NCBI GenBank assembly: GCA_019240115.1
Contig: JAFAYV010000017.1
Span: 1-64,000 of the forward strand
Source of the DNA: Solirubrobacterales bacterium
Lineage (GTDB): Bacteria; Actinomycetota; Thermoleophilia; Solirubrobacterales; Solirubrobacteraceae
DNA length: 64,000 nt
Direction of reading: 5' to 3'
Shown: piece after piece, positions 19,274 through 29,070 of the stretch
Position numbering within the stretch: position 1 is the first letter of the stretch
How the letters are laid out: each line of letters starts with the position of its first letter
Notes under the pieces: generated by a model
The model's input: only the letters and a program-made list of their open reading frames with translations
Told to the model about the DNA's origin: nothing
Databases searched by the model: none
Made by a program: the position numbers and the translations under genes

Positions 19274-19726
19274 GTGCAACGGACCAACTTCGGCGAGATG
19301 GCGTGCTCGATCGCGCGCACGCTGGAGGTGATCGGGGAGCCCTGGTCGCCGCTGATCCTGCGCGACGTGTGGGTGGGGCTCACCCGGTTTGACCAGATCC
19401 AGGCCGACCTCGGCATCTCACGCAAGGTCCTCACCGAGCGGCTCCACCACCTCGTCGAGCAGGGAGTTCTCGAGCGGAGGCCCTACGACCGCCGACCGCG
19501 CCACGAGTACCTACTGACCGACCAGGGCACGGAGCTCGTCGACATGCTGATGGTGATGGTGGGCTGGGCCGACAAATGGCTCGCCGGCGACGCCGGCCCC
19601 CCGGTCCTCTACCGCCACCACGCGTGCGGCGAGATCAGCCGCGTCGACCTTCGCTGCGCACACTGCGGAGAGCCGATGCACGCCAGCGACGTCGAGCTAC
19701 TCCCAGGCCCCGGCGCTGCGGTGTGA
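19274..19726 (+). CDS. HxlR-family transcriptional regulator
   Basis: A 150-residue winged-helix regulator of the HxlR (MarR-like) type: CSIARTLEVIGEPWSPLILRD, where CsiArTL is the signature N-terminal cysteine region, then GISRKVLTERLHHLVEQGVLE as the recognition helix. The C-terminal tail holds CGEISRVDLRCAHCG, a small Cys pair that may bind zinc or sense thiols. GTG start at 19274. It faces away from the VOC gene, which is the likely target. Confidence 0.85.
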   Translation: MQRTNFGEMACSIARTLEVIGEPWSPLILRDVWVGLTRFDQIQADLGISRKVLTERLHHLVEQGVLERRPYDRRPRHEYLLTDQGTELVDMLMVMVGWADKWLAGDAGPPVLYRHHACGEISRVDLRCAHCGEPMHASDVELLPGPGAAV

Positions 19727-20237: not shown

Positions 20238-20377
20238 CCCCTGCGGCCTTGACGGCCCGGCGTCCGAGAAGCCCCAGCGCCGCGGGCACCTCTGGAAGGT
20301 TGGTAGCCCACGTCCGCTTCGACCAACTCCTTGTGCCACCGTTGCCCGGTCGCCGCCCGACCTTCCGAATCCCCAGA

Positions 20378-20412
20378 GCCGACGCGGGGACTCGAACCCC
20401 GGACCCCTTCAT
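20378..20412 (-). repeat. Partial tRNA-Thr 3' copy (outer att-like site)
   Basis: Thirty-five bases are identical to the 3' part of the tRNA-Thr gene at 28998-29070 (acceptor, T arm, variable region, 3' side of the anticodon stem). Identity stops where the anticodon loop would begin (ACGATG instead of TACGAGTG). It lacks the 5' half and cannot be a tRNA. It reads as an attachment site left by integration into tRNA-Thr. Confidence 0.8.
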
Positions 20413-20599
20413 ACGATGGCGTGGGTCGACGTGGCTCGGTCGCGGGGATTTGCAGACGCCACGGGCGAGTCTGCGCCGTGCGGTGGTCGGCTCGGACCCC
20501 GGTTTGGCGACCTGAGGCTTCCGTCAGGCTTCCATAGCTTCACCCCCGTGCCGGGTCCGAGTTCAGACGCGTCTGTCCGGCGAGACTGCGGGCGCTCGC

Positions 20600-20911
20600 T
20601 CAGCAGCCGGCGGCGCGTGCGAGCGCCCGACAGATTTCGTCCATCCGCACGGCATCGAGTCTCGTGATCGGCTCGGTCAGGAGTGCTTGCGGCACGGTGC
20701 GGAGGTTGTCGAGGCCGACGGCACATTCGATCGGCATGCCGTCAGCGGGTCCGATGTGAACTTCGGTGTCGATCCCTCGGGTCGTGCGAGTGACTAGGGC
20801 GACGACCACGTTACGCAGCGTTGGGAGAGCCGCGTCCCGCGTCAGGACGACTACCGGACGGCGACCCTCCTGCTCGAGCTCGAGCCAGACGACCTCGCCA
20901 CGAGCTACCAC
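20600..20911 (-). CDS. MazF/PemK-type toxin (type II toxin-antitoxin)
   Basis: A 103-residue MazF-like endoribonuclease. RGEVVWLELEQEGRRPVVVL is the family opening, VVVALVTRTTRG and GLDNLRTVP are the conserved second and third strands, and the C-terminal helix is RMDEICRALARAAGC. All core segments are intact, so the toxin is probably functional and cuts RNA. The GTG start at 20911 overlaps the antitoxin gene by 7 bp. It lies inside the decayed element, where toxin-antitoxin pairs are often the last genes kept. Confidence 0.85.
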   Translation of the reverse strand: MVARGEVVWLELEQEGRRPVVVLTRDAALPTLRNVVVALVTRTTRGIDTEVHIGPADGMPIECAVGLDNLRTVPQALLTEPITRLDAVRMDEICRALARAAGC

Positions 20912-21096
20912 GGCTCCTCACGGATCGCCTCGCGCGCGTTCGCGAGCGCCCAGGCGTCCTCAGTCGTCCCTGCCCCCTCGCCCTCGCTCCACTGGAACAG
21001 CAGCTCCCGCTCTCGCGTCAGGCGAGCGAGCGCAGCCTCTGCCTCCACATCGCTCAGCTCATCGACCAGCAGGTGAAGCTTCTCGCGCGTGGTCAT
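20905..21096 (-). CDS. Probable antitoxin partner of the MazF-type toxin
   Basis: A 63-residue acidic protein, MTTREKLHLLVDELSDVEAE at the N-terminus and ALANAREAIREEPW at the end. The opening resembles small antitoxins that begin with 'xKLxxLVDxLpxxEa'. ATG at 21096 is chosen over the upstream open frame because it matches that opening. Stop TAG overlaps the toxin start by 7 bp, so the two are made together, antitoxin first. No DNA-binding motif is clear. Confidence 0.75.
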   Translation of the reverse strand: MTTREKLHLLVDELSDVEAEAALARLTRERELLFQWSEGEGAGTTEDAWALANAREAIREEPW

Positions 21097-21310
21097 CGCG
21101 CCCTTATGGTATGCGCGCGCGCCAATCGAGACCATCTACCGGTATCCGCCGGGCGGCTCCTCCGACAGAGGCTTTAGCTCACTGAGCGCAGACCTCTGCT
21201 CGGCATCGCGACGCTCGCAATAGACGAGCGCATCCTCGAACTTGACCCCCCGGTGGTTCCCGCCCCAGCGGGCGAAGCAGTCGAACGTCCTGTCGGTGCA
21301 TGGGTCGCGT

Positions 21311-21952
21311 GCGGAGCGGAGGTCAAGAGGATCAAGAAGATGACAGGCGCCCGCATCTCCGAACTGTGCGGCCTCACCTGGGCGGACGTCACCCTCGACG
21401 ACCTCGACGAGGCCGAGATCACGTTCGGCTTCCAGGTCGACCGGCACGGCCACCGCCGCCCGACCAAGACCGACGGCTCCGCCCGCACGGTGCCTATCCC
21501 CCGCGAGCTCGCGCTGATCCTCGCTCGGCACATGAGCGCAACAAACGATTCACGCCAAGAGGCATTCGTGTTCGCCACTTGCACCGGCCGTCCCCTCGGG
21601 CAGCGGAACGTCGCCCGGGAGCTTCGCAGGCACAGCAGCGCGCGACCGGCGATCACGGACAGCCGACGTTCCCGGTCCTCCACCAGGCGGATGCCGCCGG
21701 CACCCGATCCCGGCACCGGCCGGTTCGGTGCCGTCGATGCACTCGTTCCGGCACACCGTCGCCTCGGGGGCGCTGCTCGCGGGCGAGAGCGTGGACGAGG
21801 TCGCCTTCTTCCTCGGCCACCGGGACGCGACCGTCACGCGTGTCGTCTACATCCGCGAGATCGCCGACGCCCGCCGGCGGCACATGCGCCGCTCAAGGAT
21901 GACGGCCGAGTTCGGCGGGGCCCTCTGTATCGCCCTCGGCGACGAGGCGTAG
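21311..21952 (+). pseudogene. Truncated, frameshifted tyrosine integrase
   Basis: Catalytic-domain pieces of a phage-type integrase. Frame one gives MTGARISELCGLTWADVTL (box I arginine) then TVPIPRELALILARHM; a second frame gives DHGQPTFPVLHQADAAGT; a third, from about 21728, gives SMHSFRHTVASGALLAGESV, then FFLGHRDATVTRVVYIREI (box II H-x-x-R, then H and the nucleophile Tyr). Two frame changes and loss of the N-terminal arm-binding half make it inactive. It points towards the tRNA-derived repeat at 22071. It is only distantly like the intact integrase at 27741-28937. Confidence 0.75.
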
Positions 21953-21972
21953 AACATCGCCAATCGCCAGAC

Positions 21973-22010
21973 CAAGCGCCCTCGCTCCGAGACTGGAGCG
22001 GGGGCGCTTG
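21973..22010 (+). terminator. Rho-independent-type terminator after integrase remnant
   Basis: A 16-bp stem with one G-T pair (CAAGCGCCCTCGCTCC with its complement) closes a 6-nt loop, followed by CTGTTT. It starts 21 bp after the integrase stop and would end rightward transcription. Confidence 0.75.
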
Positions 22011-22070
22011 CTGTTTCAACAGGCTTCCAAATGGCTTCCATCCGCGGCCCCGAAACCCCGAAACCCCAGA

Positions 22071-22113
22071 GCCGACGCCCGGATTCGAACCGGGGACCCC
22101 TTCATTACGAGTG
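22071..22113 (-). repeat. Partial tRNA-Thr 3' copy with compensated T stem (inner att-like site)
   Basis: Forty-three bases align with the tRNA-Thr 3' half. The last twenty or so, from GGACC to GAGTG, are identical, while the T arm differs at five places. Four of these are paired changes that keep the T stem (CGGGG/CCCCG becomes CCCGG/CCGGG). This is probably the left attachment site of the younger island. Confidence 0.8.
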
Positions 22114-22194
22114 GCTCCTTTGCAGGGCATTTGCCGCAGCTAAGGGCGTCTTAGTGCAAGTCAGTGCAGTTGGCGCAGGTCAGAATTGCTGCGT

Positions 22195-22233
22195 TCGGGA
22201 CACGCTGTTTCGGGACACGGTTGGGGACACGTT
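22195..22233. repeat. Three GGGACACG iterons at the left end of the island
   Basis: TTCGGGACACG occurs at 22195 and 22209 and TTGGGGACACGT at 22221. The last 12 bases recur exactly at 28971-28982 beside the integrase start. Repeats of this kind flanking att sites are typical arm-type integrase binding sites. Confidence 0.65.
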
Positions 22234-22247
22234 TCCGCCGCGGCCCA

Positions 22248-22538
22248 TCACGGATCCCGCAGCACGTCGTGCGTCCCGGCTCGCCGCCAGACGATGTGCG
22301 GTTCGCCGGGAACCCTCCTCGCCGTACGCGAACGTGGCGCGGCCGTCGGCCGCAAATGTGATCTCCCAGACGCCGTCAGCTCCCTGGACGCGCTTGATGC
22401 GAAGGGCGGAAACTCAGGCGGGTCAGCGCGCAGCGCCGAGATGAACATGGGCAGCATCGCCAGAAACGCGGCCTGGAGGTCGCGTGACAGCCGACGGAAC
22501 TCCCGGTCGACCCGGGCCACCGACTCGAACGTCGGCAC
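22248..22538 (-). pseudogene. RelE/HigB-like toxin with two compensating frameshifts
   Basis: The open frame (96 codons, GTG at 22538) starts with PTFESVARVDREFRRLSRDL and ends with EPHIVWRRAGTHDVLRDP, both characteristic of a RelE-fold toxin family. The middle part of that frame is unlike the family. Another frame there reads IKRVQGADGVWEITFAADGR then ATFAYGEE, exactly the missing core strands. So one indel near 22400 and a second near 22310 throw about 30 residues out of frame and then restore it. It begins 6 bp after the antitoxin stop. It is likely inactive unless these are sequencing errors. Confidence 0.65.
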
Positions 22539-22544
22539 CGGCGG

Positions 22545-22784
22545 CTACTCGGCGGCGTCCGCTGCCAGGTCGTCCTCGGTGGCCGCGACCCGCTCCAGGT
22601 GGGCGATGAACCCCTCATCGCGAAAGACCGAGCCCTCCGTCTCCCGCAACACCTCGGACAGCAGCTCGCGCTCAGGCCGCAGCACCAAGGACCCGTCCGC
22701 ACGGCGCTCGACGAGCTCGTAGGAGCCGCCGAGCCCGCGCTGCGTCACCGTGATCGTGCTCCTGGCGGGGTCCATCGAATCCAT
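22545..22784 (-). CDS. Putative antitoxin upstream of the RelE-like toxin remnant
   Basis: A 79-residue acidic protein: MDSMDPARSTITVTQRGLGG, then SYELVERRADGSLVLRPERE and a C-terminal helix rich in Glu/Asp (LERVAATEDDLAADAAE). The layout (short beta N-terminal region, acidic tail) and its position 6 bp ahead of the RelE-like frame suit an antitoxin. No close family is recognised with confidence. A second ATG three codons in (22775) is an alternative start. Confidence 0.6.
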   Translation of the reverse strand: MDSMDPARSTITVTQRGLGGSYELVERRADGSLVLRPERELLSEVLRETEGSVFRDEGFIAHLERVAATEDDLAADAAE

Positions 22785-23191
22785 TCTCGCACCATTGTCC
22801 GAACGGCCCGAGGCAGCCAGGTTTGCCTCCCGGGCTCAAGGCGGCAGCCTCTCGGTGAGTGCCTGAAGGGCGACGACGGGGAGGGTGCCCTGCGGTCGCG
22901 ACGGGCCCTCCCTCCCGCGCGCAGACCAAGTCTCCCGAGGCGTCGTCGGCAATCGCTCCTTCTAGATCGAAAGCTGGGCTGCGGGTGATGACGCAAGCGC
23001 GGCTGTCGTTGACCGCGCTTCCGGGACCAGACAGGCGACGATCAGGCTGCGGCCATCGATGGTGCTGGGTATGGTGGAGCGGCGTCTTCGGGTTGCTGGT
23101 TCGGGGTAGCGCACTCCTCAACTGCAACGGCCGTGGCGGTTGCGGTCGAGGCTGGCAGCCGTACAGCGAATCTGGGCGGCGGCTGCTGTGG
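22785..23191. other. Intergenic stretch without a gene
   Basis: About 400 bp between the antitoxin and the HxlR-type regulator. Open frames exist on both strands but show Arg/Gly/Pro-rich composition and no recognisable motif. Promoter for the antitoxin pair is expected near 22790-22830. Confidence 0.6.
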
Positions 23192-23854
23192 TCAGGTTCG
23201 TCGCCGCATGATGGCGAACGCCCGACGGATGGCGGCGGCGCGACCGTCGATGCGCGCGTTGCGCTCGCACCGAGCGCCGGCGGGCGTCAGGGCGCCGGCG
23301 TCGAGCATGAGCAGTGTCTGAATGTCGCACTCGATCGTGACGTCGGCGCTGACCGGCGAGGGCCCAGATCTCGGGATCGCTCGGTCGTGGTCGACGATGA
23401 TGTGAAACCGCTCGGTACCGACCATGAAGTCGTAGGTCTCGCGGACGCCGCGGAGGAGCTCAGGCGGAGCGGTGGCGCAGCGCACCAGGGCGAGCAGGAC
23501 GCCACGGGCGGTGCTCGGGTCCAGGCGTTCGTCGAGCGGTAGCCCGGCGCCCCACTGGGCGAGGCATACGACCGGTGCGCGCAGCTGTTCGCCCAGGTCG
23601 GTGAGGACGTAGACCCGTGCCTCGCCGGGCGGCGGCAGGGTCATCTTGGCGATGACACCGTCGGCCTCGAGGGATTTGAGGCGGTCCGACAAGCGGTTGG
23701 TGCCCATCGCCGGCAGCTCGGCGAGCAGGTCCTTGAACCGCTTGGGACCCAGCAGCAGCTCGCGGACGATCAGCAGGGTCCAGCGCTCGCCGAGCACGTC
23801 TAGCGATCGAGCGACGGGACACATCTGTCCATAGGTGCGAGTTGCGGACGCCAT
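23192..23854 (-). CDS. HxlR-family regulator with SCP2-like C-terminal domain
   Basis: A 220-residue regulator. Residues ~8-100 are an HxlR winged helix: YGQMCPVARSLDVLGERWTL, LLLGPKRFKDLLAELPAMG and NRLSDRLKSLEADGVIAKM. The remaining 110 residues (from LDPSTARGVLLALV through ETYDFMVGTERFHIIVDHDR) resemble a sterol-carrier-like ligand pocket that follows HxlR domains in many actinobacteria. It would sense a small hydrophobic molecule. It is transcribed divergently from the MMPL operon across 146 bp that hold AT-rich dyads, so it is the likely regulator of that operon. Confidence 0.83.
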   Translation of the reverse strand: MASATRTYGQMCPVARSLDVLGERWTLLIVRELLLGPKRFKDLLAELPAMGTNRLSDRLKSLEADGVIAKMTLPPPGEARVYVLTDLGEQLRAPVVCLAQWGAGLPLDERLDPSTARGVLLALVRCATAPPELLRGVRETYDFMVGTERFHIIVDHDRAIPRSGPSPVSADVTIECDIQTLLMLDAGALTPAGARCERNARIDGRAAAIRRAFAIMRRRT

Positions 23855-23891
23855 CGACGAGAACGTTAGTCGTAAAAGTTAGCTAAATGAC

Positions 23892-23922
23892 TTGACAGGC
23901 TCCAGTATATGATACGTATAGT
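23892..23922 (+). promoter_or_regulatory. Promoter of the MMPL operon with nearby dyads
   Basis: TTGACA at 23892-23897 and TATAGT at 23917-23922 (19-bp spacer) lie 79 bp before the MMPL start. The spacer and flank contain ATACGTAT and, upstream at 23877-23884, TTAGCTAA within an AGTC...GACT dyad. These are candidate operators for the divergent HxlR protein. Confidence 0.55.
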
Positions 23923-24000
23923 CTGCGGTGCAGCCGGCGGAAGACGCCAGAGCCTTCCGCCGGTGGTCCATACCACCAACGTACGGGGGCCATCCACCGC

Positions 24001-26205
24001 ATGAGCATCGACGCACGCCGTGACCGATCCGTAGGGCCGGTGGCTCGCGCCGCCATGTGGACGTCGCGACATCGGGGTCGCGTGCTGCTCTGCTGGCTGA
24101 TGGTTCTCTTGGCGGCGATCGCGCTCTTCAAGAGCGCCGGCTCGAACTTCTCTAACAGCCTCACGCTTCCCGGCACGCAGTCCCAGGCGGCCGTGAATCT
24201 GCTGGGGCACGACTTTCCACAGCAGGCCGGAGATCAGGACCAGATCGTGTTCGCCACCCCAGACGGGTCGATCAGCGGCCCGGCGGTGACCGCGCAGATC
24301 GAACGCACGCTGGCTGACGTGGCGCAGTTGCCCCACGTCGTCTCCGTGGTCAGCCCCTATTCGGCTCAGGGGTCGCAACAGATCGCCGCCGACCACCGCG
24401 TTGCGTTCGCGACCGTGACCTTTGACGAGCAGGCCCGGTCGCTACCGGTCCCAGCGATGGACCGAGTGATCTCGACCGCGCGGTCAGCGCGCTCACCGTC
24501 GCTGGAGGTCGCGCTCGGCGGCCAGGCGATTGAGCACGCCCAGAGGCCGTCACTCGGCTCGGCGACCGCGATCGGACTGCTGGCCGCGAGCGTCGTCCTG
24601 CTGATCACCTTTGGCTCGTTCATCGCGATGGGCCTGCCGATCGTGACCGCCCTGCTCGGCCTCGGTGTCGGCATCAGCCTCGCCGGCCTGGGCTCCCACC
24701 TCATCCAGATCCCCGATTTCGCCACCCAGCTGGCCGCGATGATCGGTCTGGGGGTGGGGATCGACTATGCGCTGTTCATCGTCACCCGCTTCCGCGAGAA
24801 CCGAGGACGTGGCGACACGGTCGATGCCGCCGTCACCGTGGCGATGGACACCGCGGGACGCGCCGTCCTGTTCGCCGGAGTGACCGTGATCCTTGCCTTA
24901 GGGGGTCAGCTCGTGCTCGGCGTCAGATTCCTTGACGGCCTCGCGATCGCGTCCGCGCTCGCCGTCCTGACCACGATGCTGGCGGCCCTGACCGCGCTGC
25001 CGGCGCTGCTCTCCCGCTTCGGTGAGCGTGTCAAGCACCGGTCACCGCGGCTGTCGCGCCGGCGCCGCCCGGGCGCGCCGGCATCCGGAGCCTGGCTGCG
25101 CTGGTCACGCATCCTCGCCCGGCATCCCTGGCGAGGGGTGATCGCGGGACTGGCGATCATGGTCGCCCTCGCGGTACCAGCACTGTCGTTGCGGGCCGGT
25201 TCAAGCGATGCCGGCAACGACGCCACAAACCTGACCACGCGCCACGCCTACGACCTGATCGCCCAGGGCTTCGGCGCCGGGGCCAACGGCCCGCTGTCAG
25301 TGGTGGTCAGGCTGCCCCTCGCTCGTGACACCGCCGCCGTGGACCGCGTGACCGGCGCGCTGCGTGGCGCGGGCGATGTCGCGCGGGTCTCCCCGGCGCA
25401 GATCAGCCGCGAGGGAACCACCGCGGTCTTGCAGGCCTATCCACGTTCCTCACCACAAGCCGCGGCCACGACTGACCTCGTCAACCACCTGCGCCACGAC
25501 GTCCTCCCGCGCGTGCAGCGATCCACGGGCGCGAGGATCCTGATCGGCGGAGCGAGCGCCTCGGCGATCGACTTCAGCCATGTGCTGTCGAGCAAGCTGC
25601 CGCAGTTCATCGGAGTGGTGCTGATTCTGTCCGCGATCCTCCTCGCGGTGGTGTTCCGGTCGCTGGTCATCCCGATGCAGGCCGCCGCGATGAACCTGCT
25701 GTCAATCGGCGCGTCGCTGGGCGTGATCGTCGCCGTCTTTCAATGGGGGTGGCTCGGCAGTCTGCTCGGCGTCACGCCGGGGCCGATCGAGGCGTTCATC
25801 CCCGAGATTCTGTTTGCGATCGTCTTCGGGCTCTCGATGGACTACGAGGTGTTCATCGTCAGCCGCATCCACGAGGAATGGGTGCGCCGGCGCGACGCTG
25901 CGGCGGCGGTCCATCACGGCATGAGCACCACCGGGCGCCTGATCACCGCTGCGGCGACCATCATGATCTGCGTCTTCGCGTCCTTCGCGCTGGGCGACAA
26001 CCGCGACGTCAAGCTGTTCGGCATCAGCCTGGCCACTGCGGTGTTCCTCGACGCGTTCGTCGTGCGCAGCCTGCTGCTTCCCTCGGTCCTTCAGCTCCTC
26101 GGACCGCGCACCTGGTGGATGCCGACCTGGCTCAGCGAGCACGTGCCGCGGATCTCGATCGATGCGCAGAACCCCGTCCGCATCCCAGCGTTGGAGGAGC
26201 GATGA
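24001..26205 (+). CDS. MMPL/RND-family transporter
   Basis: A 734-residue inner-membrane exporter of the MmpL type. One membrane helix near residues 27-46 is followed by an extracytoplasmic domain of ~130 residues. A block of helices then carries the family motif GVGIDYALFIVTRFRE, and after a second outer domain (~400-515) a second helix block carries GLSMDYEVFIVSRIHEEW. The two Asp-Tyr motifs are the proton-relay sites. It would export lipids, siderophores or toxic hydrophobic compounds using proton motive force. It is first of a three-gene coupled operon under the divergent HxlR-type regulator, which suggests an inducible efflux function as island cargo. Confidence 0.9.
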   Translation: MSIDARRDRSVGPVARAAMWTSRHRGRVLLCWLMVLLAAIALFKSAGSNFSNSLTLPGTQSQAAVNLLGHDFPQQAGDQDQIVFATPDGSISGPAVTAQIERTLADVAQLPHVVSVVSPYSAQGSQQIAADHRVAFATVTFDEQARSLPVPAMDRVISTARSARSPSLEVALGGQAIEHAQRPSLGSATAIGLLAASVVLLITFGSFIAMGLPIVTALLGLGVGISLAGLGSHLIQIPDFATQLAAMIGLGVGIDYALFIVTRFRENRGRGDTVDAAVTVAMDTAGRAVLFAGVTVILALGGQLVLGVRFLDGLAIASALAVLTTMLAALTALPALLSRFGERVKHRSPRLSRRRRPGAPASGAWLRWSRILARHPWRGVIAGLAIMVALAVPALSLRAGSSDAGNDATNLTTRHAYDLIAQGFGAGANGPLSVVVRLPLARDTAAVDRVTGALRGAGDVARVSPAQISREGTTAVLQAYPRSSPQAAATTDLVNHLRHDVLPRVQRSTGARILIGGASASAIDFSHVLSSKLPQFIGVVLILSAILLAVVFRSLVIPMQAAAMNLLSIGASLGVIVAVFQWGWLGSLLGVTPGPIEAFIPEILFAIVFGLSMDYEVFIVSRIHEEWVRRRDAAAAVHHGMSTTGRLITAAATIMICVFASFALGDNRDVKLFGISLATAVFLDAFVVRSLLLPSVLQLLGPRTWWMPTWLSEHVPRISIDAQNPVRIPALEER

Positions 26206-26357
26206 ACCAGCAACCATCACCAGCGCTCACGGTCGCCGCGCCGGCGAGGAGCACGATCCCGGCGATCGACATGCAGGGCGTGGCGCTCGGCACCCTGGTG
26301 GTGGCAATCTCGGCCCAACCGGGTCTCGCCGCCGCCGAGGACGCGACCGCGGCATGA
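26202..26357 (+). CDS. Small protein of unknown function in the MMPL operon
   Basis: A 51-codon frame starting in the MMPL stop (ATGA) and ending in the next gene start (ATGA). The central part, IPAIDMQGVALGTLVVAISA, is a weak hydrophobic segment that could span or touch the membrane; the ends are polar and Ala-rich. Coupling on both sides is the main evidence that it is translated. I recognise no family. Confidence 0.5.
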   Translation: MNQQPSPALTVAAPARSTIPAIDMQGVALGTLVVAISAQPGLAAAEDATAA

Positions 26358-26923
26358 GCTCCGCCCTGCGAAACCTCTACCTGTTCCGCGTCGCGTTCTC
26401 AATCGTCTGGGTTGCCCTCCTCACCCTAACCAGCCCACCGTCTCACCCAGGAACCACGGTGAGCATCCTTGGCGGCCTGCTCCTCGTCGCCTACCCGATC
26501 TCCGACGCGGCCGCGACGGTCGTCGACCTGCGCACCGACACCACCGGACGGCTACGTCTCCCGCAGCGCGTCAATGCCGCCACCAGCGCCGCGGCCGCGA
26601 TCACGGTCGCCATCGGCGTATCGGTGAGCCTGGTCACCGCGATGGACATCTTCGGCGTCTGGGCGATCATCAGCGGCGCGATCCAGCTGACAGTCGGGGC
26701 CCGTCGCCTCGGGCAGCTCGCCGGCCAGTGGCCCATGATCATCAGCGGCGCTGGCTCGATCTTCGCCGGAACGACCTTCATCGGCTGGAGCCGCTCTCCC
26801 ACCTCGGCACTGCACGCCCTCGCGCAGTACTCCATCGGCGGAGCCATCTGGTACCTGCTCACAGCCCTCTGGCTCCAGTCAGCCAGGCCCGCAGCACCCA
26901 CCATCGTGGCCCACGACTCCTGA
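26354..26923 (+). CDS. Membrane protein, DUF308/HdeD-like
   Basis: A 189-residue integral membrane protein with about six hydrophobic helices: FRVAFSIVWVALLTL, VSILGGLLLVAYPI, AAAAITVAIGVSVSLV, IFGVWAIISGAIQLTVGARR, MIISGAGSIFAGTTFIG and IGGAIWYLLTALWL. The IFGVWAIISGAIQL helix followed by a basic residue cluster is characteristic of HdeD/DUF308 proteins. It is coupled to the 51-residue frame upstream. A role as accessory of the MMPL exporter or in acid/envelope stress is inferred from position only. Confidence 0.72.
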   Translation: MSSALRNLYLFRVAFSIVWVALLTLTSPPSHPGTTVSILGGLLLVAYPISDAAATVVDLRTDTTGRLRLPQRVNAATSAAAAITVAIGVSVSLVTAMDIFGVWAIISGAIQLTVGARRLGQLAGQWPMIISGAGSIFAGTTFIGWSRSPTSALHALAQYSIGGAIWYLLTALWLQSARPAAPTIVAHDS

Positions 26924-27025
26924 CCATCACTCCCTGGTGACCAACAGACAAGCCCGGGCCCAACCCCGCCGGCTCGGTCGAGCCCGCGCGCCCGCGCAAT
27001 CACACCTGGGAAACGCCCAGCGTGA
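26924..27025. other. Short non-coding spacer
   Basis: About 100 bp after the DUF308-like gene. No terminator hairpin or promoter is obvious. Confidence 0.4.
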
Positions 27026-27328
27026 ACGCGTGAAAAACAAGGCTGCTTTGTCAGACCAGTCCTCGGGCAAGCGGCCGGAATCTGCGCCACCGACGCCGAA
27101 ATCAAATGCGCCTCACACCGCGCCGGCGACCCACGGGCGCTGCCAATGACCCGCGAGACACACACCACGGTCATGATCCTCGCCGCCGGAAAATGCCAGA
27201 TCGAGCTCAGCACCGGACCCTTCCTCCTCTCCGAGCCCGGGGACTACGCGATGTGGGATCCAAGCATCGACCACACCTCGGACATCCTCGCCCGATTCGA
27301 TCATCACGATGCGGTGCTTACCCACTAA
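27026..27328 (+). pseudogene. Cupin-domain protein, start lost
   Basis: The frame after a TGA at 27023 reads FVRPVLGQAAGICATDAEIK, then CASHRAGDPRALP, THTTVMILAAGKCQIELSTG, GDYAMWDPSIDHT and ends at 27328. This is a single-cupin pattern (compare the 'VEVKWGxHxAGE...TTxxxLxxGRFRI...GDYVxWGPGxDH' type). There is no start codon before the conserved N-terminal part; the first ATG (27146) would remove it. Either the gene is a 5'-truncated remnant or it uses an unseen start. The loss of the usual Trp in the 'KWG' position supports decay. Confidence 0.5.
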
Positions 27329-27740
27329 GCATCGCCCGACCACCAGCAGCACGCCTGCCCAGAGCAAACATACGAGAGCTCTCCGCGCCGCGGTCAACCA
27401 ACCGTGCCTCACAACCCACAACCAGGACCAGACCAGCTAGAGCGATGCCTGCGTTGTCGGGAAAGCAGGTCTGCGCCGGGCAGAGCGCTGATCGACCTGC
27501 TCGTCGCCCAAACCGGCAAGCGGCTCGCCGTGTTCAGCGACGCGTCGACAGACCCGCTTTCACGAAACGTGGGGAAGCCTCAGCGGCACTCCTCGGCCAT
27601 TGCTTTGCTCGACGGCCCACATCCGCTGCGGCGATCGGTGCCCCGTCGGCAGACACAGGCCGGCTCGCCAAAGTTGCCGCCGCTCGCCGGCGGGCCCCGA
27701 AACCCCGCCCACCCCCCGAAGATGTCCCGAGATGTCCGAG
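27329..27740. other. Gene-free stretch with short direct repeats near the integrase end
   Basis: About 400 bp holding no recognisable gene. At 27719-27775, running into the integrase stop, GATGTCCCGAGATGTCC, GACGTCCCGAGATGTCCC and CAAGTCGCCCCAAGTCGTCC form short direct repeats. They could be recombination-protein sites or simple sequence drift. Confidence 0.5.
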
Positions 27741-28937
27741 CTAGACGTCCCGAGATGTCCCAAGTCGCCCCAAGTCGTCCGAAGACCTCCCGGCCGGAAC
27801 GGCGGCTGAGGCGAGCGCGAACGCCTCCGCCACCAGGCGGGCGTCCTCCTCGTCGCGGGGCGCGTAGTGCAGGTAGCGCATCGTCGTCTGGATGTCCGCG
27901 TGGCCCATCCACTCCTGCACCCGCCTGATGTCAGCCTTGGCGATCATCCGGGTCCCGAACGTGTGGCGCAGATCGTCGAAGCGCAGCGGCCTGAGCCCGG
28001 CGCCTCCCAACGCCACCTTGTACCGGCGGCGCAGCGCTGAGCTGTCCAAATATCCGCCGGCCTCGCCGCAGAACACGAGGTCGTCCTCGCCGACGAACAT
28101 CTTGCGGGCACCGAGCTTGGCCAGCGCCTCAGCGACGTCCGGCGCCAGCGGCACCGCACGTACCTTCCCCGACTTCGGCGTCGTCAGAACGCCGGCGGCA
28201 TAGCTTCCGCGGACCCGGACCACCGAGCCGGCGAAGTCGACGTCGCGCCACGTGAGCGCGAGCAGCTCACCCAGGCGCAGCCCGGTGAACGCCGCGGTGA
28301 GGAACACCGCGGCGTCCTGTTCTGAGGCAGCGGCTCGGACCAGCGACCACACCTCCTCGGGCGAGAACACCTGTATATCGCCGCTGCGCTTCAGCGCCGG
28401 CTTTTCGACCTCCGCCGCGGCGTTGACCTGGAGCCCCCACACCTTCGAGGCCCGTTTCAGGATCCCGTGCAGCAGCACGAGCGACTTCGTGCGGCTGCTC
28501 GCAGCGCCACCCAGCCCGGACAGCCACCGCTCGATCGCCTCCGTCGTCACCTCCTCCAAAGCCATCGAGCCGAACGCCGGCAGCAGCTGCGAGCGCACGA
28601 GCACCTTGTAGCCCGCAAGCGTGGACGGCTTGCGCTGGCGGTCGAACTCCACGTAGCGAAGCCACTCAGCCGCCGCGTCGCCAAACGTCGCGCCGGTCCG
28701 CACCTGCCCCACCAGCGTGCCGCGCCGCGCCTCGTGCAGCACTTCGCGAAGCCAGTTCTCCGCCAGGCGCTTCGTGAAGTAGCCGGTCGGCGGACGCCCC
28801 CGCTCAGTCCACGCCGGACCCAGCTTCCTCTGCACCTGACGCCCGTCCGGAAGCCGGTACTTGGCGTACCAGACCGGGCCTCGCGCCCGCTCGACCCGAA
28901 AGACGTGACCCGTCGGCTGCCTCGGCTGTCCCGCCAT
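27741..28937 (-). CDS. Tyrosine-type site-specific integrase
   Basis: A 398-residue phage-type integrase that would integrate and excise the island at tRNA-Thr. Residues ~1-60 form an arm-binding region (VWYAKYRLPDGRQVQRKLG). Residues ~85-170 are the core-binding SAM-like domain (FGDAAAEWLRYVEFDRQRKP). The catalytic domain has Arg in TGLRLGELLALTWRDVDF, H-x-x-R in FDDLRHTFGTRM, His in EWMGHADIQTTMRYLHY and the nucleophile Tyr in the same motif. All catalytic residues are present, so it is probably active. Its 5' end is 60 bp from the tRNA 3' end, in the same orientation, as is usual for tRNA-targeting elements. Confidence 0.92.
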   Translation of the reverse strand: MAGQPRQPTGHVFRVERARGPVWYAKYRLPDGRQVQRKLGPAWTERGRPPTGYFTKRLAENWLREVLHEARRGTLVGQVRTGATFGDAAAEWLRYVEFDRQRKPSTLAGYKVLVRSQLLPAFGSMALEEVTTEAIERWLSGLGGAASSRTKSLVLLHGILKRASKVWGLQVNAAAEVEKPALKRSGDIQVFSPEEVWSLVRAAASEQDAAVFLTAAFTGLRLGELLALTWRDVDFAGSVVRVRGSYAAGVLTTPKSGKVRAVPLAPDVAEALAKLGARKMFVGEDDLVFCGEAGGYLDSSALRRRYKVALGGAGLRPLRFDDLRHTFGTRMIAKADIRRVQEWMGHADIQTTMRYLHYAPRDEEDARLVAEAFALASAAVPAGRSSDDLGRLGTSRDV

Positions 28938-28959
28938 CGTCTGCAGATCTTACGCCGAT

Positions 28960-28982
28960 CTGGGGACATATTGGGGACACGT
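28960..28982. repeat. Two GGGGACA iterons at the right end of the island
   Basis: TGGGGACATA and TTGGGGACACGT lie in the 60 bp between integrase start and tRNA 3' end. The second is identical over 12 bases to 22221-22232 at the other end. Confidence 0.65.
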
Positions 28983-28997
28983 ACCCCGAAAACCTAA

Positions 28998-29070
28998 AGC
29001 CGACGCGGGGACTCGAACCCCGGACCCCTTCATTACGAGTGAAGTGCTCTACCAGCTGAGCTACGTCGGC
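28998..29070 (-). tRNA. tRNA-Thr (anticodon CGT)
   Basis: A complete 73-nt cloverleaf: acceptor GCCGACG pairing with CGTCGGC, D arm GCTC...GAGC, anticodon stem CTTCA/TGAAG with loop CTCGTAA (anticodon CGT, reading ACG), and T arm CGGGG-TTCGAGT-CCCCG. The discriminator is T and CCA is not encoded. Its 3' half serves as the integration site of the island. Confidence 0.95.

What the first reader, a model, noticed from the sequence alone, without database searches (positions are those of the whole stretch)
22071..22113. Compensatory T-stem changes in the inner tRNA-derived repeat
Relative to the resident tRNA-Thr the copy at 22071 differs at five positions in the T arm. Four are paired G/C swaps that keep the stem intact, while the adjacent ~20 bases through the anticodon loop are identical. 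Random decay would not preserve pairing. The copy probably descends from a functional tRNA-Thr allele of a different host, which would mark transfer between species and place the crossover in the identical block. The outer copy at 20378, in contrast, matches the resident T arm exactly.
Basis: partly seen in the sequence, partly recalled or inferred. Interest (0 to 1): 0.62.

Follow-up and report, generated by a model that had tools for sequence, protein, structure and literature searches.

The report
Foreign tRNA-Thr half between stacked islands
A leftover tRNA fragment carries a working but foreign T arm because two mobile elements inserted one behind the other at the same tRNA gene, each bringing its own copy of the gene's 3' half; it is a clear example of a known kind of event, not a new system.

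Summary
The 44-nt fragment at 22070-22113 differs from the resident tRNA-Thr(CGT) at five positions: four make two exact G-C/C-G pair swaps in the T stem, one is in the T loop. Five random substitutions would give this about 4 times in 100,000. The same T stem is found in complete tRNA-Thr(CGT) genes of congeners, and the exact variant in other genera of the family (Solirubrobacterales). The fragment is the junction of two stacked integrative elements. Its tRNA-5' side is the distal arm of element A (22114-28997, intact IntA-type tyrosine integrase). Its 3' side is the tRNA-proximal arm of element B (20377-22069, frameshifted and truncated IntB). Identity to the tRNA begins at the anticodon loop in nine such fragments, which puts strand exchange there. 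So the variant arm was most likely delivered by B, the resident arm by A, and the outer copy keeps the older host arm. B's integrase groups with one from a distantly related congener, which favours transfer between species; no exact donor was found. A control shows that T-stem variation alone is common in this genus. This is a well-resolved member of a known kind (tandem tRNA-integrated islands), of modest interest.

The parts
28998..29070 (-). resident tRNA-Thr(CGT); 5' half host, 3' half (from the anticodon loop) inferred to be supplied by element A
   Evidence: ARAGORN; identical 73-mer in nine congeners
22070..22113 (-). inner tRNA 3'-half copy: junction of element A's distal arm with element B's tRNA-proximal side; T arm CCCGG-TTCGAAT-CCGGG
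20377..20416 (-). outer tRNA 3'-half copy: distal end of element B, inferred to keep the older host T arm (CGGGG-TTCGAGT-CCCCG); 1-nt deletion at the anticodon loop
22114..28997 (.). element A (6.9 kb): IntA integrase at the tRNA end; HxlR regulator and MMPL transporter as cargo
   Evidence: parallel element in congener G007
27741..28937 (-). IntA, tyrosine integrase, 398 aa, open frame, start about 62 bp from the tRNA 3' end
   Evidence: PF00589 E 1.3e-29 and PF14659; family relatives sit 3' of many tRNA genes in the same arrangement
22115..22228 (.). element A distal attachment arm
   Evidence: 81% over 114 nt to the distal end of the IntA element of G007 and 81% over 107 nt to G010; alignment z 45 and 46
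20417..22069 (.). element B remnant (1.7 kb): PemK module plus IntB pseudogene
   Evidence: 20600-21097 is 79% identical to a PemK module beside an att copy of G020; 21343-22043 is 81% identical to the IntB element of G024
21343..21952 (+). IntB pseudogene: N-terminal half missing, frameshifted; stop about 120 bp from the inner copy, convergent with it
21953..22069 (.). element B tRNA-proximal arm
   Evidence: alignment z 52, 19 and 14 against the same place in G024, G016 and G001
20600..20911 (-). PemK/MazF-like toxin gene at the distal end of element B
   Evidence: PF02452 E 5.7e-16; 84% aa to G020
23192..23854 (-). HxlR-type regulator, element A cargo
   Evidence: PF01638
24001..26205 (+). 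MMPL-family transporter, element A cargo
   Evidence: PF03176

Best explanation
Two integrative elements with different tyrosine integrases inserted at the same tRNA-Thr(CGT) gene and now lie in tandem behind it. Each recombines inside the 7-nt anticodon loop (CTCGTAA) and carries on its attP a 3' half of tRNA-Thr, so insertion rebuilds a full tRNA and pushes the previous 3' half to the element's far end. The 44-nt copy at 22070 is the joint between element A (22114-28997) and the decayed element B (20377-22069). Its T arm is the one element B brought, copied from a working tRNA-Thr of another species whose T stem reads CCCGG/CCGGG. The outer copy keeps the host arm from before B, and the present tRNA carries the arm that A brought. 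Shown: the fragment, its pairing, the identity of its two flanks, the variant arm in tRNA-Thr genes of relatives, and identity starting at the anticodon loop. Inferred: the exact exchange point, that B carried the arm, and the donor species. The order A-after-B is likely but not proven; the assignment of the arm to B holds under either order.
For: Five differences, two perfectly compensated pairs, chance 3.8e-5. The tRNA-5'-side flank of the inner copy matches the distal arm of IntA-type elements (G007 z 45, G010 z 46), and its 3' side matches the proximal arm of IntB-type elements (G024 z 52, G016 z 19, G001 z 14) (nucleotide matches). IntB-type integrases sit convergent, about 120-180 bp from the tRNA-Thr 3' end, in G024, G016 and G001, as the pseudogene does here. 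In nine partial copies identity to the tRNA is 24% 5' of the anticodon stem, 94% over CACTCGTAA and 92-99% after it; this is an anticodon-loop site, where the loop equals the 7-bp overlap (PMC8371274). The variant stem is in complete tRNA-Thr(CGT) genes of congeners and of other genera, and beside the IntB integrase of G001. The sister genome in the delta' tree (G013) has the CGGGG arm, the same as the outer copy. IntB of the window is nearest to G024 (82% aa, support 0.88) although those hosts share only 57% in delta'. Internal control: the IntA-type element at this genome's tRNA-Thr(TGT) has tRNA and distal copy identical from the anticodon loop on.
Against: No sequenced relative was found with both an IntB-type element and the exact CCCGG/TTCGAAT arm: the G001 IntB site has the stem with loop TTCGAGT (and an assembly gap), and G024 and G016 have CGGGG stems. 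T stems vary in this genus even in tRNA-Thr(GGT), so a T-stem difference alone does not prove transfer. The IntB tree rests on about 200 residues of a pseudogene. No empty site with the window's left flank was found in relatives. The outer copy's tRNA-5' flank has only a weak match to other distal arms.
Confidence: 0.78

Rival explanations
1. Element A, not B, carried the variant arm: strand exchange took place 3' of the T arm (T/acceptor junction), so the distal copy kept A's own T arm and the resident tRNA arm never changed.
For: Outer copy and resident tRNA share the same arm, so a single variant on A would be the simplest count of arms. IntA-type integrases sit next to CCCGG-stem tRNA-Thr genes in G026 and G126.
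Against: All nine partial copies keep the tRNA sequence from the anticodon loop onward and lose it sharply before it. With an exchange 3' of the T arm, the kept anticodon and T-arm part would be a functionless passenger and should decay.
Confidence: 0.12
2. The variant arm was the host's own arm before element A came, and host lineages flip T stems by ordinary compensatory mutation; no transfer between species is needed.
For: tRNA-Thr(GGT) T stems also vary in the genus; CCCGG stems are scattered in the delta' tree.
Against: The inner copy's 3' side is IntB's proximal arm, so its 3' half came with or after B. The outer copy, displaced by B, has the CGGGG arm, as do the sister genome G013 and eight other congeners.
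Confidence: 0.06
3. Gene conversion of the fragment's T arm by tRNA-Pro(TGG) or tRNA-Gln(TTG) of the same genome, which carry the identical 17-nt T arm.
For: Exact 17-mer present in both.
Against: The tract would have to be very short, flanked by acceptor and variable-loop sequence that does not match; the same arm occurs in true tRNA-Thr genes of relatives.
Confidence: 0.02
4. Random decay after displacement.
For: The outer copy does show decay (1-nt deletion).
Against: Chance of two compensated pairs from five substitutions is 3.8e-5, and the same variant exists in complete tRNA-Thr genes.
Confidence: 0.01

Closest known systems
Tandem tRNA-integrated genomic islands as catalogued by Islander (PMC4383910)
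   Same: tRNA gene plus displaced 3' fragments in the same orientation downstream, an integrase near each fragment, anticodon-loop sublocation (class A).
   Different: Here the stacked copies differ in sequence, so each 3' half can be assigned to an element; member B is a 1.7-kb remnant with a broken integrase.
Tyrosine integrases that cut at the borders of the anticodon loop, e.g. IntSSV1 and classical bacterial ones (PMC8371274)
   Same: Identity between element and tRNA begins at the 7-nt loop; PF00589 integrase beside the tRNA.
   Different: Cleavage not measured here; two integrase subfamilies with opposite gene orientation share one site.

Membership tests
tRNA-integrated island (element A) | complete tRNA at one end and a same-orientation 3' fragment at the other, downstream | tested here: met
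   28998-29070 and 22070-22113
tRNA-integrated island (element A) | tyrosine integrase gene inside | tested here: met
   PF00589 E 1.3e-29
tRNA-integrated island (element A) | fragment flanks match element ends in an independent insertion | tested here: met
   G007 element
tandem array member (element B) | own tRNA fragment | tested here: met
   20377-20416
tandem array member (element B) | own intact integrase and length over 2 kb (Islander filters) | tested here: not met
   pseudogene, 1.7 kb: a decayed remnant
anticodon-loop integrases | strand exchange bordering the anticodon loop | tested here: inconclusive
   identity boundary agrees; cleavage itself needs experiment
tyrosine recombinase IntA | domain match and catalytic region present | tested here: met
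   Pfam match; motifs TGLRLGE, FDDLRHTFGTR and GHADIQTTMRY read by eye in the translation; the usual first His of HxxR reads Asp, effect not tested

The most novel reading that the evidence does not exclude
Successive integrative elements rewrite the T arm and acceptor half of a working tRNA gene, so that the tRNA's T stem in this genus is in part horizontally inherited from mobile elements (CGGGG to CCCGG to CGGGG in this one genome) and its displaced fragments are an ordered record of past T arms.
Probability: 0.45. Interest if true: 0.42.

Novelty: new member of a known kind. Interest (0 to 1): 0.24.

Why it matters
Tandem islands with identical repeats do not show which 3' half came from where. 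Here the compensated stem swap works as a marker. It lets one read the stacking, argue that exchange lies on the anticodon-loop side of the T arm, and see that a tRNA gene's 3' half can be replaced by a mobile element's version. It also warns that T-arm differences in tRNA genes used as attachment sites need not be vertical inheritance.

Tried and rejected
Own-genome second tRNA-Thr as source: none found with the arm. Association of the variant arm with one integrase type: not clean, both types occur with both stems. T-stem variability as evidence that elements drive it: a control with tRNA-Thr(GGT) shows comparable variability, so I do not claim it. Empty site of the left flank in relatives: no synteny found. 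IntB outside the genus as donor lead: only two distant hits at 39-43%. RNA folding of the 40-nt fragment alone is not better than shuffles and says nothing. Literature searches for element-driven T-arm replacement gave no direct precedent in the held library.

Full report
What is there. The window holds one tRNA gene, tRNA-Thr(CGT) at 28998-29070 on the minus strand, and two partial copies of its 3' half in the same orientation: 22070-22113 and 20377-20416. The inner copy differs from the resident at five of 44 positions; four of these exchange two whole T-stem base pairs (G-C to C-G) and the fifth is in the T loop (G to A). The stem stays fully Watson-Crick. A simulation gives 3.8e-5 for two or more compensated pairs from five random substitutions, and 0.0012 for that with an intact stem even if all five are forced into the T arm. 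The outer copy has the resident T arm but a 1-nt deletion at the anticodon loop.

Is the variant arm real elsewhere? Yes. In the genus (28 genomes held) most tRNA-Thr(CGT) genes read CGGGG/TTCGAGT/CCCCG, nine of them identical to the resident over all 73 nt. G025 and G026 have the CCCGG/CCGGG stem in complete genes, and G001 and G027 have it in partial copies. In the family, 44 of 146 genomes (16 of 25 genera) match the variant stem within one mismatch, and the exact loop form TTCGAAT occurs in several genera. A scan of named genomes found 25 stretches with the exact 38-mer. Most are labelled Solirubrobacterales, Thermoleophilaceae, Conexibacter or Actinomycetota. Three carry a Bifidobacterium breve label, but they correspond by contig number, length and position to genomes G103 and G104, which the genome search places in this family, so that label is doubtful. 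In this genome the only other exact copies of the 17-nt arm are in tRNA-Pro(TGG) and tRNA-Gln(TTG); near matches are in tRNA-Phe and tRNA-Pro(CGG).

What lies around it. An intact 398-aa tyrosine integrase (IntA; PF00589 E 1.3e-29) starts about 62 bp from the tRNA 3' end. Its relatives sit in the same arrangement beside tRNA genes for Thr, Lys, Arg and Met in the family, and G007 holds a parallel 6.9-kb element with an 83% identical IntA and its own distal copy. Next to the inner copy, on its other side, is a second integrase type, IntB, pointing toward the copy; here it is truncated at 21343 and frameshifted. IntB genes lie convergent, about 120-180 bp from tRNA-Thr(CGT), in G024, G016 and G001; in G016 the frame is broken. 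A PemK module at the far end of B is 79% identical to one beside an att copy in G020.

The junction. The 120 nt on the tRNA-5' side of the inner copy match the distal arm of the IntA element of G007 (z 45) and a distal copy in G010 (z 46), and nothing else strongly; the 150 nt on its 3' side match the tRNA-proximal arm of IntB elements in G024 (z 52), G016 (z 19) and G001 (z 14). So the inner copy is the seam between A and B. Whether B came first and was pushed out, or B later entered A's distal site, the 3' half at the seam is B's if exchange is at the anticodon loop. B's decay against A's open integrase favours B first (inference).

Where exchange happens. In nine partial copies identity to the tRNA is at background (24%) up to the anticodon stem, 94% over CACTCGTAA, and 92-99% beyond. 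The boundary is the 7-nt anticodon loop, the standard overlap for tRNA-targeting tyrosine integrases (PMC8371274). As an internal control, the IntA-type element at this genome's tRNA-Thr(TGT) has a distal copy identical to the gene from the loop on. It follows, by inference, that the outer copy is the host arm from before B, the inner arm was brought by B, and the present tRNA arm was brought by A.

Transfer between species. The window's IntB is nearest to that of G024 (82% over 203 residues; sister with support 0.88), although the hosts' delta' proteins are only 57% identical and lie across the midpoint-rooted split of the genus tree; the host's sister in that tree is G013. This favours movement of the IntB element between species of the genus. 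An exact donor (IntB plus TTCGAAT loop) was not found. A control weakens one tempting extension: tRNA-Thr(GGT) T stems also vary widely in the genus, so T-stem variation as such is not evidence that elements drive it.

Known or new. Tandem islands at tRNA genes, restoration of the gene by an attP-borne fragment and displaced 3' fragments are known and catalogued; Islander lists 125 tandem arrays of two or more (PMC4383910). What is less usual is that the repeats are distinguishable by a clean compensated marker, which makes the stacking readable. I file it as a new member of a known kind.

Noticed in passing
L127 4543-4581, L123 10171-10209, L124 5497-5535, L125 5319-5357, L126 7590-7628: In five congeners there is a copy of only the 5' half of tRNA-Thr(CGT), ending at the anticodon loop (CTCGTAA) and then unrelated sequence. 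In G015 a complete gene lies 72.8 kb downstream. This looks like the rarer class of islands that displace the 5' half (Islander lists 159 islands with a 5' fragment).
   Followed up: partly
L123 9911-9984: In G006 a complete tRNA-Thr(CGT) with a different anticodon stem and T stem lies about 190 bp after such a broken 5' half, next to a long open frame on the opposite strand that looks like an integrase by eye (no hit with a profile built from IntA and IntB).
   Followed up: no
G000:C16:30471-45855 (L223, L227): Same genome, second IntA-type element (72% aa, one internal TGA) at tRNA-Thr(TGT); distal copy at C16:45809 identical from the anticodon loop on, about 15 kb element.
   Followed up: partly
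G000:C48:528-1513 (L224): Third IntA-type integrase in the same genome, beside tRNA-Lys(TTT).
   Followed up: no
window 27741-28937: IntA reads FDDLRHT where the first His of the HxxR motif is usual; whether this Asp matters was not tested.
   Followed up: no
window 19274-19726 and 23192-23854: Two HxlR-type regulators, one inside element A and one just left of element B.
   Followed up: no
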